A stretch of DNA of 64,000 bases from Elusimicrobium minutum Pei191 (GTDB lineage: Bacteria; Elusimicrobiota; Elusimicrobia; Elusimicrobiales; Elusimicrobiaceae): positions 1,240,001 through 1,304,000 of the forward strand of contig NC_010644.1 in the NCBI RefSeq assembly GCF_000020145.1, written 5' to 3'. Numbering within the stretch: the stretch's first letter is position 1; every line of letters begins with the position of its first letter. Below, one piece after another: positions 17,365 to 33,819 of the stretch. The translations under genes and the position numbers were made by a program. Below the pieces are notes generated by a model, which worked only from the letters and a program-made list of their open reading frames with translations, was not told where the DNA came from and made no database searches.

Positions 17365-18849
17365 ATGTTTAAAGACCAGAGGGGCGTTTTCCTTAATATC
17401 ATAAAATGGTTTATACTTTCAACTGCAATAGGCGCAATAGTAGGTGTAGCGGCCGCGGCCTTTTTATTTATTTTAGACCATTCTATAAGCACCACAACCT
17501 CATTTCCGTTTTATTACGTAGGGCTGCCCTTTGTTTTTATATTAACCTCATTTTTATCAAAACGAGTCTTTCCTAAAGATACGGATTTTTCTACAGACGC
17601 GGCAATAAACAAAATTAACGCTTATAAACCTATATCGCTTATCTCCGCGGCAAAAGCTTTTTTCCTGCCTGTTTTAACAATATCTGCGGGCGGATCGGCG
17701 GGTAAAGAAGCCCCTTGTGCGGACGTAGGGGCAGGCCTTGCCTCTTTTTCCGCCCGTTTGCTAAAACTTTCTAATGAAGACCGCAGAAAATTAATGATTT
17801 GCGGCGTGAGCGCCGGCTTTGCGGGAGTATTCGGCGTGCCTATATCGGGCGCGATATTCGGGCTTGAAGTTTTATGGGTAGGTTATATTTTTTATGAGGT
17901 AATGTTCCCGGCGCTGGTAGCCGGGATAACAGCTTACCAGGTTACAAGCGCGCTAGGCGTTACATATATTTACCACCCGATACCGGTTGTGCCTGTCTTT
18001 ACGGAAGGTTTCTTTTTAAAAATACTTTTTGCGGGGTTGTTCTTCGGGCTTATCTCATTATTATTTATAGAAATAATGAAACTTTTTAGAGTTGTTTTCA
18101 GATATATATCTATAAAATTTTCTTTTTTTTGGAAGGCTTTTACCGGCGGAGCTATACTTGTAGCAGTGGGACTGCTTTTATCGCCTGAATTTTTGGGGTT
18201 AGGCATGGAAGAAACTAACGCTATCTTACACGGCAGCGCGGAGCCTTCCTTCGCGTTAGGTTCCCTGTTTAAAATGATTACAACCGCCATTACATTTTCA
18301 GCAGGCGGGGTTGGCGGTATAGTAACACCTATATTTTTTATAGGCTCGCAGGCAGGAGCTGTGTTGGGGGAATTTTTGCAAATTGACCCGGCTACCGTAG
18401 CGGCTTTAGGCGTTGTAGCCGTACTGGCGGGAGCTACAAACGCGCCTTTAGCCTCAAGTATTATGGCTATTGAATTATTCGGCCCGCAAATAGCGCCTTA
18501 CGCCGCAGTTTGCTGTGTTATAAGCTTTTTGGTAACAGGACAAAGAAGCGTATTCGCCAAGCAAAGAGTTTCTTTTGATAAAACAATTTCTGACCCGGAA
18601 CTGGCAGTATCCCACACACACAGAAAAAGAATGCCCGTTAAAAAAGCCAGTTTTTTAAAACTTGCAAAACACTTAATACCACAAGAAGAAAACCAACACA
18701 AATATGTTAAGCGTAAAAAAGAATCTGGCAACTCTTCCGCGGCGGCGGAGAAAACCGGCGAAAAAGAAATTTCTAAAAGCATATTTAAGCATTTAATGCC
18801 AAAGTTTAAAGAACAAGAACAAAATGTTGACAAAGACGAAAAAAAATAA
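17365..18849 (+). CDS. ClC-family chloride channel or transporter
   Basis: An inner-membrane protein of 494 residues with about 10-12 hydrophobic segments. Filter motifs of the ClC family: GSAGKEAPCADVG (about 111-123, equivalent to GREGP with the gating glutamate kept), GVSAGFAGVFGVPISGAIFGLE, and SAGGVGGIVTPIFFIGSQAGA. The last ~90 residues after the membrane part are hydrophilic and lysine-rich with no CBS domain visible. A TAATAT box ends 7 nt before the ATG and there is no Shine-Dalgarno, suggesting a leaderless transcript. Followed by its own terminator. Confidence 0.92.
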   Translation: MFKDQRGVFLNIIKWFILSTAIGAIVGVAAAAFLFILDHSISTTTSFPFYYVGLPFVFILTSFLSKRVFPKDTDFSTDAAINKINAYKPISLISAAKAFFLPVLTISAGGSAGKEAPCADVGAGLASFSARLLKLSNEDRRKLMICGVSAGFAGVFGVPISGAIFGLEVLWVGYIFYEVMFPALVAGITAYQVTSALGVTYIYHPIPVVPVFTEGFFLKILFAGLFFGLISLLFIEIMKLFRVVFRYISIKFSFFWKAFTGGAILVAVGLLLSPEFLGLGMEETNAILHGSAEPSFALGSLFKMITTAITFSAGGVGGIVTPIFFIGSQAGAVLGEFLQIDPATVAALGVVAVLAGATNAPLASSIMAIELFGPQIAPYAAVCCVISFLVTGQRSVFAKQRVSFDKTISDPELAVSHTHRKRMPVKKASFLKLAKHLIPQEENQHKYVKRKKESGNSSAAAEKTGEKEISKSIFKHLMPKFKEQEQNVDKDEKK

Positions 18850-18880
18850 AACTCCCGCTTATATAAACGGGAGTTTTATT
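18848..18880 (+). terminator. terminator of the ClC gene
   Basis: Stem AAAACTCCCG / CGGGAGTTTT with loop CTTATATAAA, followed by ATTTAT. The stem starts within the ClC stop codon. Confidence 0.8.
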
Positions 18881-18884
18881 TATG

Positions 18885-19040
18885 CCAGTACGGGCCCCCT
18901 GCGTAAGCCGGGGAATGTATAGTATCCTGATTTCACAACCCCTCCGCCTTGCTGCTGCGGAGGGGTTGCTGTTTGTTGTTGAGTGAAATCGCGCAATCTT
19001 TGAAACAAAAGAACCCCCGGGCGTAAGCCCTGGGGGTTTA
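18885..19040 (+). repeat. structured multi-hairpin repeat, copy 1
   Basis: Element of about 155 nt found a second time, in the opposite orientation, at 31685-31838. Order of parts: a short hairpin CCCC...GGGG at 18896-18913; an outer inverted repeat GATTTCAC (18929-18936) / GTGAAATC (18983-18990); inside it a 12-bp hairpin CAACCCCTCCGC / GCGGAGGGGTTG (18936-18968); a conserved single-stranded stretch TTTGAAACAAAAGAA; and a closing hairpin AACCCCCGGGC / GCCCTGGGGGTT (19012-19038). It lies between two convergent genes (ClC and pilin). The last hairpin may also serve as a terminator. Confidence 0.8.
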
Positions 19041-19047
19041 TTTATAT

Positions 19048-19521
19048 CTAAAACACATATGCGCCGTTTACCACTTCTCCGCCGTAAGATTTGCATAACC
19101 GCATTCCAATGGCACTGTTTGGAAAAACATTGCATGTGCGGTAATTTTTATCAACAATCCAGTAAAAATAGTAGTCCGTGTTGGAACCTGCGGAGTTCAA
19201 CTTTATAATTCTGATAGCAGGCGGAAGCGTTGCTTGCAAAGTGTCAAGCTGTATTTTGAAATTTTTGCTTTTAGCCAAATCTCCACTTGCAGTATATCCC
19301 GACGGAATTTCAATATCTAAGTTGGAGAAGTCGTTGGTCCATTCCCCGGTTTGTAAATTATAACGCTGTAAAGAATCAACAATATTCTTGCCTAATATAA
19401 GTGCTTCGGAAGCTCGGCTTTTTTCTACCGCGGAGGTGTACTGCGGCAACGCAATAGCGGCCAATATGCCTATAATTAAAACCACCACAAGCAACTCTAT
19501 TAATGTAAACCCTGTTTTCAT
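19048..19521 (-). CDS. type IV prepilin / pseudopilin
   Basis: A 157-residue pilin-like protein. Leader MKTG is followed by the prepilin peptidase site and the hydrophobic stalk FTLIELLVVVLIIGILAAIA, with Glu at mature position 5. The globular domain ends with a cysteine pair (CNVFPNSAIGMRLC), as in pilins with a C-terminal disulfide loop. The start at 19521 is chosen because it gives the canonical four-residue leader and has GGATGAG upstream; a longer in-frame start is unlikely. It stands alone between the structured repeat and the adenosine deaminase gene; assembly genes are elsewhere. Confidence 0.93.
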   Translation of the reverse strand: MKTGFTLIELLVVVLIIGILAAIALPQYTSAVEKSRASEALILGKNIVDSLQRYNLQTGEWTNDFSNLDIEIPSGYTASGDLAKSKNFKIQLDTLQATLPPAIRIIKLNSAGSNTDYYFYWIVDKNYRTCNVFPNSAIGMRLCKSYGGEVVNGAYVF

Positions 19522-19621
19522 AATATTCTCATCCTTTTTTATACTTGGTATCTTTTTATTTAGCGCAATTGCATAAACAAGTTGTAAGATATTAAACAAT
19601 TTTTTATTTACTACTTTACGT

Positions 19622-31062: not shown

Positions 31063-31094
31063 AGTTATATTTTAGCATTTTGTATAATGGTAAT
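31063..31094. promoter_or_regulatory. compact divergent promoter pair, rlmN and rnhA
   Basis: Only 32 nt separate two divergent start codons. Plus strand: TATAAT at 31083-31088, 6 nt before the rnhA ATG. Minus strand: TAAAAT at 31074-31069, 6 nt before the rlmN ATG. Transcription would start at or next to each ATG, so both mRNAs appear leaderless; the -35 regions must lie in the opposite gene's 5' end. Confidence 0.5.
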
Positions 31095-31679
31095 ATGAAA
31101 GTTATTATCAATGTTGACGGAGGCTCGCGCGGCAACCCCGGGCCGGGAGCCAGCGCTTACGTTATAAAAGACGCCAAGGGTAAAATTATTGCGCAGGAAG
31201 GCGTTTTTTTAGGTATTTGCACAAATAACGAGGCTGAGTTTAAAGCGCTTCTTTTCGCTTTTGGCGCGGCGGCTAAACTAAAAGCCACACATATACAAAT
31301 TTACGCCGATTCACAATTGCTTGTTAAACAATTTTTAGGCGAATATAAAATTAAAAGCCCAAATCTGGTGCCTATAATGGAAGAAATACGTAAAAAGGCA
31401 AAGCCGTTTTCCTCCGTGCAGATAGCGCATGTACCCCGTGAGAAAAATAAAGAAGCCGACAAGCTTGCCAATATAGCTATGGATAAAGCCACAAAACCTG
31501 TTATCCAAAAAATGAAAGCTGACGCTGAAAATTTTTACAAAACCCAAAATAAAGAAAAAATTATTAACCACTTAAGCGCAAAAACCGAGGAGGAAGAAAA
31601 GCCGCTCTCCCCCGCGTCCGCAAAAAATAAAACTTCAAAAACAAAGAAAGCAGAACCTGAACAATTAGAATTGTTTTAA
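31095..31679 (+). CDS. rnhA: ribonuclease HI-type protein
   Basis: A 194-residue RNase H-fold protein cleaving RNA in RNA-DNA hybrids. The four acidic active-site positions are visible: Asp in NVDGGSRGNPGPGA, Glu in NNEAEFKALL, Asp in YADSQLLVKQF, and Asp in KEADKLANIAMD. The RNase H domain ends at about residue 135; the remaining ~60 residues are a Lys/Glu-rich tail ending in EQLELF, which resembles a clamp-binding (QLxLF) motif. Start at 31095 is preferred over an upstream ATG at 31080 because the conserved KVIINVDGG begins there. Confidence 0.93.
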   Translation: MKVIINVDGGSRGNPGPGASAYVIKDAKGKIIAQEGVFLGICTNNEAEFKALLFAFGAAAKLKATHIQIYADSQLLVKQFLGEYKIKSPNLVPIMEEIRKKAKPFSSVQIAHVPREKNKEADKLANIAMDKATKPVIQKMKADAENFYKTQNKEKIINHLSAKTEEEEKPLSPASAKNKTSKTKKAEPEQLELF

Positions 31680-31684
31680 TCTTG

Positions 31685-31838
31685 GCAAAAGAAACCCCGG
31701 GTTTAAGCCCGAGGTTTCTTTTGTTTCAAAGCTTCACTTTGCGATTTCACTCAACAGCAACACCTCCGCAGCAACAAGGCGGAGGTGTTGTGAAATCAAT
31801 ATATTATCCATACCCCGGTTTAAGCAGGGGAAACTTCG
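31685..31838 (-). repeat. structured multi-hairpin repeat, copy 2
   Basis: Same element as at 18885-19040, inverted. Read on the minus strand: CCCC...GGGG hairpin (31830-31813), outer repeat GATTTCAC / GTGAAATC (31797-31743), inner 12-bp hairpin CAACACCTCCGC / GCGGAGGTGTTG (31790-31758), the conserved TTTGAAACAAAAGAA, and closing hairpin AAACCTCGGG / CCCGGGGTTT (31717-31692). Relative to copy 1, the inner stem has a C-to-A change paired with a G-to-T change at the opposite position, so pairing is kept. It sits between the convergent rnhA and dCMP deaminase genes. Confidence 0.8.
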
Positions 31839-31846
31839 TACTCTCA

Positions 31847-31883
31847 TAAAAAAATCCCGCGTTTTAAAACGCGGGATTTTTTT
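31847..31883. terminator. bidirectional terminator after the dCMP deaminase gene
   Basis: Palindromic stem ATCCCGCG / CGCGGGAT with central TTTTAAAA, flanked by an A run (31847-31853) and a T run (31877-31883), so it can stop transcription from either side. Confidence 0.88.
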
Positions 31884-31903: not shown

Positions 31904-32410
31904 TTAAGCTATTTCTTCCGCCGTAAGCTGGCGACATTCTATACCGCTTTTGGCAAGAAACACGTTTCCTTCTTGGGACCTGTCATAGAGGTCTAAAAAA
32001 TAAACTCTTTCAATGCCGGCGCTTACAATAACTTTTGCGCAGTTTATGCACGGTGAAAGCGTTACGTAAACAGTAGCGCCCGCTGTGGAGATTCCGTTTT
32101 TAGCCGCAAACAAAATAGCGTTTTGTTCGGCGTGCAATTCATTATCCATAGACCACTGCCCATGCACTTTAAAGAAGTCCGGGCTTTTTAGAAATTCTTC
32201 CAAAGTCGCATATTGGGAGGAAAATTCTTTCTTATAAATTTCGGCAAAGTTATCGTCACAATGGCACTGCCCCGAAGGCACGCCGTTGTAACCTATACTT
32301 ATAACTCTGTTATCTTTAACAAGCACCGCGCCTACCTGAAGGCGGCAGCAGGTGCTTTGGGCGGCAATAAGTTTTGCCATTTCAATAAATAATTTATGTT
32401 TATTTTTCAT
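31904..32410 (-). CDS. dCMP deaminase (cytidine/deoxycytidylate deaminase family)
   Basis: A zinc-dependent deaminase of 168 residues, dCMP to dUMP in pyrimidine nucleotide synthesis. Zinc motif HAEQNAILFAAKNG and SPCINCAKVIVSAGI; the N-terminal KLIAAQSTCCRLQVGAVLVKDNRVISIGYNG and CHCDDNF segments are typical of dCMP deaminase/ComEB proteins. The start at 32410 forms a TAATG junction with the end of the creD-like gene; an upstream in-frame ATG inside that gene is rejected. Confidence 0.93.
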   Translation of the reverse strand: MKNKHKLFIEMAKLIAAQSTCCRLQVGAVLVKDNRVISIGYNGVPSGQCHCDDNFAEIYKKEFSSQYATLEEFLKSPDFFKVHGQWSMDNELHAEQNAILFAAKNGISTAGATVYVTLSPCINCAKVIVSAGIERVYFLDLYDRSQEGNVFLAKSGIECRQLTAEEIA

Positions 32411-33819
32411 TATTCGTACCAATTAATATTTCTGGTTGTATACATAACCGCCCCAAGGCCCAGGAATAATCCCAAAGAACCTAAAAGGAGCGACAAATCC
32501 TGCAGCTGCAAAAGAACATACAGATACATGTAAAGCACAGCTATTATACCAGCGGGAATCCAAAAATATTTGGTGCCCTGTTTTTTAATAACTCCGTAGC
32601 GCGCGTAAGCGCCTACCATTAAAACCACCGCGGCCGATGCAATCATATAAGACCAGCCGAAAGGAATAAATTCCGATATTGAAACCAAAAGCAGATAGAA
32701 TACCGCCATAGCCAATCCGACTAAAACATATTGGAAAGGATGTATGGGCATTTTACCTGCTATTTCAAAAACAAAGCAGGCTAAAAATGTTAAAGATAAA
32801 AACAAAATACCGTACTTAACCGAGCGCAGCCCGTTGCGGTAATTATCCACGGGCATGGAAAGTTTTACGCCGAATATTGAAGGCGTAATATCCAAACTTT
32901 CAAACATTTGCGCAATACCGCTCGCTAGGTAAGAAATATTCCATTCGGCCGAAAACCCGTCCGAGCTTATTGTTTTTGAGTCAGGCAAAAAACTGTTAAA
33001 AAATAAAGGGTCTTTCCAGGATGATTTAACTATAAATTTATTTTCTTTTGCCGCCGGAACAAAATTAATTGTGTTTGAACCTCTTAAAGCGAATTTAACC
33101 TCAAAATCCGAGGAGGTGTTTGAATAATTTACGGCAGAACCTATCGCTTTTAATTGATTGCCCGGCCGATTTCCGTAACTGCCGTATTCTTTATAATGCC
33201 CCCGCATTGAATCTTCGGTCTTAGTTAAAACCGCAATGTCTTTGTAGTCCTCATCATTACCTAAAGCGGAACTGAAAAGAACGGCGTTACTGCCCGTATA
33301 AGGGGCAAAATCAAGTTTTCTGTTATTAAAACTGCCTTCAGGCAGTTTGGCAACGCCTTTTAAATCAGCAACTTCAATAGTCATCTGTGTTTTGGATAAA
33401 TCAACAGTCCTGCCTTCGGTATCATCCATTTTGCCAAAAGCGCCTTTAAGCGTTACTTCAGCCGTGTAAACCGGTAATTTGAAAATGCCTATATATCTTA
33501 TTTGCGGAATAATGTTTACGTCCGCCTCTAATTTAGACGGTGAAATTTTGTAAATGCCATACCTTTTAACGTCTTTTACTTTGCCATCTTTATCTTTTTC
33601 CTGATATATATAGGAATAAGGAACATTTAAAAAAGGCGCCGCTATAAGCTGATCTTTCCCCCAGGACCCCGAGATTGTTTTAAAAGCGTCGTTTTTATAA
33701 TTGCTTCTTTCCTTTACCACGCCTTTAACAAAAGAAAGCGGAATTAACATTAAAAGCAAAAGCACGCCTATAACGCCCGCTTTTAATATTATTTTAAAAT
33801 TAAATTTTTTTTCACTCAT
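32410..33819 (-). CDS. creD: CreD-family inner-membrane protein
   Basis: A 469-residue membrane protein. One N-terminal helix (about 11-29), a large extracytoplasmic domain (about 30-325) with GIYKISPSKLEADVNI, LKGVAKLPEGSF and FSAEWNISYLASGI, then five to six closely spaced C-terminal helices with the typical IHPFQYVLVGLAMAVFYLLLVSISEFIPF region. CreD in enterobacteria belongs to the CreBC envelope-stress regulon; its biochemical role is unclear. No creBC kinase/regulator pair is adjacent here. Confidence 0.93.
   Translation of the reverse strand: MSEKKFNFKIILKAGVIGVLLLLMLIPLSFVKGVVKERSNYKNDAFKTISGSWGKDQLIAAPFLNVPYSYIYQEKDKDGKVKDVKRYGIYKISPSKLEADVNIIPQIRYIGIFKLPVYTAEVTLKGAFGKMDDTEGRTVDLSKTQMTIEVADLKGVAKLPEGSFNNRKLDFAPYTGSNAVLFSSALGNDEDYKDIAVLTKTEDSMRGHYKEYGSYGNRPGNQLKAIGSAVNYSNTSSDFEVKFALRGSNTINFVPAAKENKFIVKSSWKDPLFFNSFLPDSKTISSDGFSAEWNISYLASGIAQMFESLDITPSIFGVKLSMPVDNYRNGLRSVKYGILFLSLTFLACFVFEIAGKMPIHPFQYVLVGLAMAVFYLLLVSISEFIPFGWSYMIASAAVVLMVGAYARYGVIKKQGTKYFWIPAGIIAVLYMYLYVLLQLQDLSLLLGSLGLFLGLGAVMYTTRNINWYE

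What the first reader, a model, noticed from the sequence alone, without database searches (positions are those of the whole stretch)
18885..19040. Roughly 150-nt multi-hairpin element present twice in the window (copy 1)
Three hairpins, an outer inverted repeat (GATTTCAC/GTGAAATC) and a conserved single-stranded stretch are shared with 31685-31838. Each copy lies between convergent genes and ends in terminator-like hairpins. This does not look like a simple terminator: the internal architecture is conserved over the whole length. It could be a MITE/REPIN-like mobile element, an intergenic structured RNA or a transcript 3'-end module.
Basis: seen in the sequence. Interest (0 to 1): 0.6.

Follow-up and report, generated by a model that had tools for sequence, protein, structure and literature searches.

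The report
Miniature IS200 elements nesting behind terminators
The repeated 160-base hairpin element is a transposase-less cut-down relative of IS200 jumping DNA that settles just behind the stop signals at the ends of genes, where it probably does little harm.

Summary
Their left and right ends are homologous to those of IS200-type (Y1/HUH transposase) insertion sequences in the same bacterial family. They are therefore non-autonomous IS200 derivatives, of the PATE class. In one relative, elements with such ends are recent: its 18 left flanks were found in a close relation; two sites are filled in both, four join base-for-base to a right flank as empty sites, without target duplication.

The new point is where they land: directly 3' of a gene's intrinsic terminator, in one orientation. 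A strong hairpin precedes 22 of 29 own copies against 36 of 715 control sites, and 17 of 18 junctions in that relative. Escherichia coli IS200C does the same at 11 of 11 distinct sampled sites, against 7 of 200 controls. No IS200 transposase was found in the own genome and the copies form a star-like tree, so they look like relics of an old burst. Targeting versus selection is unsettled.

The parts
18884..19041 (+). non-autonomous IS200-type element, copy 1
   Evidence: boundaries by homology to IS200 ends
18851..18883 (+). intrinsic terminator of the upstream ORF (hairpin 18851-18874, T-rich tail ending in TTAT) = inferred target site; not part of the element
18895..18913 (+). left-end (LE) hairpin
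   Evidence: homologous to IS200 LE; fold
18929..18936 (+). 5' arm of the internal 'bridging' stem (GATTTCAC)
18937..18967 (+). central GC-rich hairpin
   Evidence: tip inverted in 7 of 29 copies
18968..18982 (+). conserved unpaired T/G-rich stretch
   Evidence: similar stretch in copies of other genera (by eye)
18983..18990 (+). 3' arm of the bridging stem (GTGAAATC)
19012..19041 (+). right-end (RE) hairpin with T-rich 3' tail
   Evidence: homologous to IS200 RE
31688..31845 (-). non-autonomous IS200-type element, copy 2
31846..31877 (-). intrinsic terminator of the neighbouring minus-strand ORF (hairpin 31854-31877, tail ending in TTAT 31849-31846) = inferred target site
31813..31830 (-). 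LE hairpin of copy 2
31743..31797 (-). bridging stem (arms 31743-31750 and 31790-31797) enclosing the central hairpin 31759-31789
31693..31716 (-). RE hairpin of copy 2; also reads as terminator-like on the + strand, behind the ORF ending at 31679
17365..18849 (+). ORF 494 aa (ClC-type channel, recalled, not searched) reading towards copy 1
19048..19599 (-). ORF 183 aa (pilin-like, recalled, not searched) converging on copy 1
31080..31679 (+). ORF 199 aa (RNase H-like, recalled, not searched) converging on copy 2
31904..32422 (-). ORF 172 aa (deaminase-like, recalled, not searched against a family library) reading towards copy 2

Best explanation
The element is a non-autonomous, IS200-type mobile element (PATE class): an IS200 left end and right end, each with a subterminal hairpin, around a short structured core instead of a transposase gene. 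It was spread by an IS200 TnpA (Y1/HUH) supplied in trans, as single-stranded DNA, and inserted 3' of a T-rich site ending in TTAT or similar, on the strand on which an intrinsic terminator hairpin lies just upstream. No such transposase is found in the own genome now, so the 31 copies are probably relics of an old burst. Because the right-end hairpin is itself terminator-like on the opposite strand in about half the copies, insertion into the shared terminator of two convergent genes tends to leave each gene a terminator. Shown: copy number, homology of ends to IS200, terminator association, empty sites without duplication for the related element. Inferred: mobilisation in trans, the single-stranded route (from the family), the neutrality of insertion, and a mechanism in which the terminator hairpin plus T-tract stands in for the element's own right end (hairpin plus AGTTTYAT, similar spacing) in the strand exchange.
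For: 31 full-length copies. Left and right ends shared with IS200 elements carrying tnpA; the tnpA of L139 is an open 143-aa frame scoring 111.5 bits to NF033573 (cut-off 55) and matching solved structures that include ISHp608 transposase. 38 of 90 family genomes, own included, match the IS200 element. Relative G029: 18 of 18 left flanks placed in relative G072 (one, L170, only at 74% identity and perhaps a paralogue); 4 join base-for-base to a G029 right flank as empty sites, 4 more match a right flank only from base 4-45, 2 are filled in both, 8 have no right flank among the 15 held. Terminator association: hairpin score >=25 at 22 of 29 own junctions against 36 of 715 intergenic TTAT and 22 of 192 TTTTAT controls (Fisher 6e-21 and 1e-12); >=20 at 28 of 30 left junctions in relatives, 18 of them from G029. 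Right-end spacing 8 nt, target spacing 5-10 with mode 7-8 in relatives. 24 of 29 copies between convergent ORFs. Independent support: E. coli IS200C, 11 of 11 distinct sampled sites against 7 of 200 controls, and an MG1655 empty site without duplication. No IS200 transposase found in own genome. Star-like tree.
Against: No empty site was obtained for an own-genome copy: neither same-genus genome has a copy at the threshold used, G001 differs in gene order at copy 2 and G002 gave no match to the neighbouring gene. In own copies both ends read TTTTAT-like, so absence of a target duplication is inferred from relatives. The interior of the G029 and G072 elements is not assembled and neither genome has a Y1 hit; they are called IS200 because their ends, including the 3' end of tnpA, are 99% identical to L103. 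4 of 29 own junctions score under 14 and 7 of 29 under 25; of two extra copies one has no terminator, though another hairpin precedes it. One of 18 G029 insertions lies in a coding frame. Own-copy spacing is looser (4-13, one 19) and unoccupied terminators show similar spacing (4-15), so spacing does not prove hairpin recognition. Selection against other sites could produce part of the bias. The one-protein search of the own genome had no positive control in that call, though the Pfam search did.
Confidence: 0.86

Rival explanations
1. REPIN-like element moved by the genome's own RAYT-like Y1 protein.
For: One Y1 gene exists, RAYT-like (NF047646 71.1 bits, below cut-off 80); RAYTs and IS200 transposases are related (recalled).
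Against: No copy lies beside the gene; the ends match elements whose transposase hits the IS200 model, and the REP-transposase model only at 21.9 bits. G029, with many identical insertions, has no Y1 hit at all, but its element interiors are not assembled.
Confidence: 0.06
2. A family of structured non-coding RNAs or 3'-end processing modules under selection for RNA function.
For: Strong folding; same architecture with different stem sequences in other genera; G-T exceeds A-C in four of five helices; shuffles rarely reach the observed pairing (7 of 500) or double-sided changes (9 of 500).
Against: No Rfam match in the window; the excess over shuffles is small (84.8% against 83.6% paired); star-like, decaying copies; hairpins are also required by the IS200 mechanism.
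Confidence: 0.05
3. Mobile element as described, but the terminator association is produced by selection alone: IS200 inserts at any T-rich site and only post-terminator insertions survive.
For: Convergent intergenic space is a safe place; an insertion in a coding frame exists (L170).
Against: Among intergenic TTTTAT sites only 22 of 192 have such a hairpin, yet 22 of 29 copies do; insertions in G029 are as biased (17 of 18); E. coli IS200C 11 of 11. None of this excludes strong selection.
Confidence: 0.25
4. Orphan guide-RNA element of a TnpB (omega-RNA) system.
For: IS605-type ends; structured core next to the right end.
Against: No TnpB in the genome (the model rings in 8 of 14 control genomes); the related element found whole has room for tnpA only (551 bases).
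Confidence: 0.02

Closest known systems
PATE (palindrome-associated transposable element), Haloquadratum walsbyi (PMC3119063, passages read)
   Same: No terminal inverted repeats, near-terminal palindromes like those of IS605-type transposons, too short for a transposase, terminal-only versions of about 50 bp.
   Different: Here bacterial, related to tnpA-only IS200, found behind terminators, with a conserved internal stem and core.
IS200/IS605 family, IS200 group (E. coli IS200C as annotated; family features from PMC7290912 passages)
   Same: Subterminal hairpins, insertion 3' of a short sequence, no duplication; same terminator association found here.
   Different: No transposase gene in the element itself.
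Group IIC introns (PMC7161350 passages, with Robart 2007 seen only in its reference list)
   Same: Insert after intrinsic terminators, using a stem-loop.
   Different: RNA retroelements with reverse transcriptase; none found in this genome. Resemblance is of target choice only.
REP/REPIN with RAYT (recalled; REP background in PMC1525189 passages)
   Same: Dispersed intergenic hairpins, Y1-type transposase.
   Different: Longer, different architecture, not next to the RAYT-like gene.

Membership tests
PATE | near-terminal palindromes related to IS605-type transposons | tested here: met
PATE | no terminal inverted repeats | tested here: met
   alignment: the inverted repeat is internal, about 45 nt from the left end
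PATE | too short to encode a transposase | tested here: met
   153-171 nt per aligned copy, TTAT included
PATE | no target duplication | tested here: inconclusive
   met for the related element at four exact empty sites; own copies have TTTTAT-like letters at both ends and no empty site
IS200/IS605 (related autonomous element) | Y1/HUH TnpA of the IS200 type | tested here: met
   L139 111.5 bits to NF033573
IS200/IS605 (related autonomous element) | insertion 3' of a short site without duplication | tested here: met
   four exact empty sites, for elements whose interior is not assembled
IS200/IS605 (window element) | carries tnpA | tested here: not met
   therefore not filed as an IS
classical MITE | terminal inverted repeats with target duplication | tested here: not met
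   no terminal repeats; duplication absent in the related element
REPIN/RAYT | element copies flank the RAYT gene | tested here: not met
structured RNA family | match to a curated family | tested here: not met
structured RNA family | discrete transcript | not testable with these tools
   no RNA-seq

The most novel reading that the evidence does not exclude
IS200-group transposases across bacterial phyla choose targets by structure: an intrinsic terminator (hairpin plus T-tract) is used as a stand-in for the transposon's own right end, so insertion is steered to gene ends and is nearly silent because the element brings a replacement terminator. An internal stem bridging the two ends, kept with matching changes in several autonomous copies and rebuilt in the miniature ones, holds the single-stranded ends together.
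Probability: 0.4. Interest if true: 0.75.

Novelty: new variant of a known kind. Interest (0 to 1): 0.58.

Why it matters
It explains a dispersed repeat as a miniature IS200 and shows a landing pattern, directly behind intrinsic terminators, that also holds in a relative and at the sampled sites of E. coli IS200C. If targeting rather than selection causes it, an HUH transposase reads a hairpin in its target, a DNA counterpart to group IIC introns, and there is a testable reason why IS200 is a mild passenger.

Tried and rejected
Rfam and tRNA/tmRNA in the window: nothing. Group II intron: no reverse transcriptase found in the genome. TnpB guide RNA: no TnpB. RNAalifold on the 29 copies found only 6 pairs, so I named the structure by hand; its covariation is weak. 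Tree of copies: unresolved; 7 changes for 7 inverted tips means no grouping can be claimed. An empty site for copy 2 in G001: gene order differs. A first alignment of relatives' copies held a wrong stretch for one row (A2) and was replaced (A3). Part of the script printed nothing for L103 because of a wrong index; two searches gave the answer. ORF neighbours were unreliable and were replaced. In one search the script did not find the left end of L242 and L243; I read these two by eye. Literature searches for IS200 or IS605 with terminators and for insertion sequences with terminators, listings seen, showed no paper on IS200 targeting terminators; PMC9208149 (passages) reports IS200 over-represented between convergent genes. 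Subscription papers and ISfinder were not searched.

Full report
What is there. The two window copies are members of a dispersed family. A 186-base query finds 29 copies in the 1,643,562-base genome (34 matches, five of them short inverse matches inside copies already listed); a covariance model built from those 29 finds 31 full-length copies. Mean pairwise identity of the 29 aligned copies is 71% (54-83%, 406 pairs). They form a star-like, unresolved tree with median end branch 0.14, as expected of one old burst followed by independent decay. The two same-genus genomes have none at the threshold used; 41 of 90 family genomes, own included, have some model match at E <= 0.01, most of them weak.

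Anatomy. Consensus order: TTAT | short A/G-rich leader | left-end hairpin with a GTAA loop | GATTTCAC | GC-rich hairpin | T/G-rich unpaired stretch | GTGAAATC | small hairpin (CAAAGC/GCTTTG) | A-rich stretch | right-end hairpin CCCCGGGCGTGAGCCCGGGG | AGTTTTAT. Both copies fold far better than shuffles. Within the genome, pairs are kept mainly by descent: 84.8% of cells paired against 83.6% in shuffles (7 of 500 as high), 29 double-sided cells against 19.9 (9 of 500 as high), nine of the 29 at one pair. The hairpin before TTAT differs from copy to copy and lies at the end of the upstream gene.

Identity. A genome-collection scan with the right-end pattern gave 41 loci; 31 carry titles with an Elusimicrobia-type name and the other 10 belong to one 'uncultured bacterium' assembly, CASFXV. 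L103, from a Candidatus Avelusimicrobium assembly, carries a whole 551-base element: terminator, TTTTTAT, left end, Y1 transposase gene (frame broken; 93 aa of its C-terminal part open), right end. By eye, its left end shares GCGTAAGCC, GGGATGG and GTATCC, and its right end AAAGAAACCCCGGGCGTRAGCCCGGGGAGTTTYAT, with the window elements. With this element as query, 38 of 90 genomes of the family match, own included. L139 carries an open 143-aa tnpA that scores 111.5 bits to the IS200 equivalog model and matches solved structures including ISHp608 transposase. So the window elements are non-autonomous IS200 derivatives. The own genome's single Y1 gene is RAYT-like, not IS200, and an IS200 TnpA query finds nothing there (without a positive control in that call).

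Miniature copies in other genera have the same plan with other stem sequences (for example stems CCCGCCGC/GCGGCGGG and CCCGCTACTA/TAGTAGTGGG in place of GATTTCAC/GTGAAATC). The left ends of some are almost letter for letter those of IS200 copies in other genomes: L208 and L142, L212 and the G029 type (by eye). In autonomous copies the corresponding stem joins the left-end side to the 3' end of tnpA, with different but matching letters: 13 pairs in L139 and L147, 17 in L142, 9 in L103, 7 in L140; L149 and L144 gave no clear counterpart (7 copies tried). Matches of 8-9 pairs elsewhere occur in the same scan, so the short ones prove little. This 'bridging stem' is a by-product observation; part of its 3' arm is constrained by coding.

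Mobility and target. In relative G029 these ends lie at contig ends; 15 right ends are 100% identical over 71-76 bases. The interiors are not assembled and G029 and G072 have no Y1 hit; the ends, including the 3' end of tnpA, are 99% identical to L103. The 18 left flanks examined all have a match in relative G072, L170's only at 74%. Two sites are filled in both. In four, the G072 sequence runs from the terminator's TTTAT straight into base 1 of a G029 right flank (L084/L057, L079/L060, L082/L062, L167/L055); four more match a right flank from base 4-45; eight had no right flank among the 15 held. One of these eight, L170, lies in an open frame of 452 aa that abuts the junction. So the element inserts after TTTAT, carries AGTTTCAT as its right end, and makes no duplication at the four exact sites.

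Terminator association. A scoring of hairpins 3-13 nt before the junction gives >=14 at 25 of 29 own copies and >=25 at 22 of 29, against 36 of 715 intergenic TTAT and 22 of 192 TTTTAT sites in the same genome. At the looser >=14 the controls are 112 of 715 and 53 of 192. Controls used the window plus 26 fetched stretches (a few hundred bases overlap), excluding ORFs of 80 aa or more and 30 nt around elements. Of the two extra copies, one has a terminator (score 36); the other (score 6) sits behind a different hairpin with a T-rich tail. In relatives, 30 distinct left junctions of one left-end type (duplicates and those with under 45 nt upstream dropped) give 28 at >=20 and 23 at >=25; 18 of the 30 are from G029, 17 of these at >=20. 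Seven autonomous copies read by eye: six behind a terminator, L147 uncertain. A second IS200 lineage, six of six loci whose upstream was printed, also sits behind terminators (by eye). In E. coli I took 12 of the 40 listed IS200C hits (3388 records matched), chosen among the full-length rows before seeing flanks, though names of overlapping genes were listed; 11 distinct sites, all with score >=20, against 7 of 200 intergenic TTG sites in 45 kb of MG1655. At htpX/yebQ, MG1655 has the empty site, TTTTTTT directly followed by ATGCCC. Four plasmid hits of 40 listed: two score 18 and 25, one has a terminator by eye, one unclear.

How it may work. IS200/IS605 transposases bind subterminal hairpins and insert 3' of a short sequence without duplication (PMC7290912 passages). 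Here the right end is hairpin-AGTTTYAT, and the target is hairpin-TTTTTAT, with the last G/C of the hairpin 5-10 nt from the junction in relatives (mode 7-8; right end 8), 4-13 and once 19 in own copies. Exchange of equivalent hairpin-T-tract units would give exactly the products seen. This is inference; unoccupied terminators have similar spacing (4-15). After insertion between convergent genes (24 of 29 copies), the upstream gene keeps its terminator and the opposite gene meets the right-end hairpin followed by a T-rich stretch; 15 of 29 copies meet a simple terminator rule there. Group IIC introns use the same kind of site (PMC7161350 passages).

Novelty. The element fits PATEs (PMC3119063 passages), apart from the duplication test that could not be done on own copies. 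The terminator association of IS200 was not found in the held library, though an excess of IS200 between convergent genes is in print (PMC9208149 passages). Confidence was lowered by 0.01 after checking, because the G029 element interiors are unseen.

Noticed in passing
A1 columns 73-89; for example L028:1988-2158, L032:1975-2143: The tip of the central hairpin is inverted in 7 of 29 own copies, exactly the reverse complement of copy 1's tip in 2, which suggests hairpin flipping or template switching.
   Followed up: partly
L139, L142, L147 against L103: A long-range stem between the left-end side and the 3' end of tnpA in several autonomous IS200 copies, with matching changes between copies.
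   Followed up: partly
L039:1486-1530, L097, L109, L148, L161, L162: Solo single-hairpin elements of about 45 bp that look like a fused left and right end, five of six behind a hairpin scoring 20 or more.
   Followed up: no
L126-L130, L134: A second IS200 lineage in the family also sits behind terminators (by eye).
   Followed up: partly
L240-L255: E. coli IS200C copies, and most of four plasmid IS200 copies, sit behind terminators.
   Followed up: partly
G000:C1:650497-650826 (L041): Single RAYT-like Y1 gene with no element copy beside it.
   Followed up: partly
L014:1985-2146 (-): This copy has a second left-end-like hairpin upstream instead of a terminator.
   Followed up: no
L140, L103, L144: Decayed IS200 transposases: altered HUH motif, broken frame, and truncation by another sequence.
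   Followed up: no
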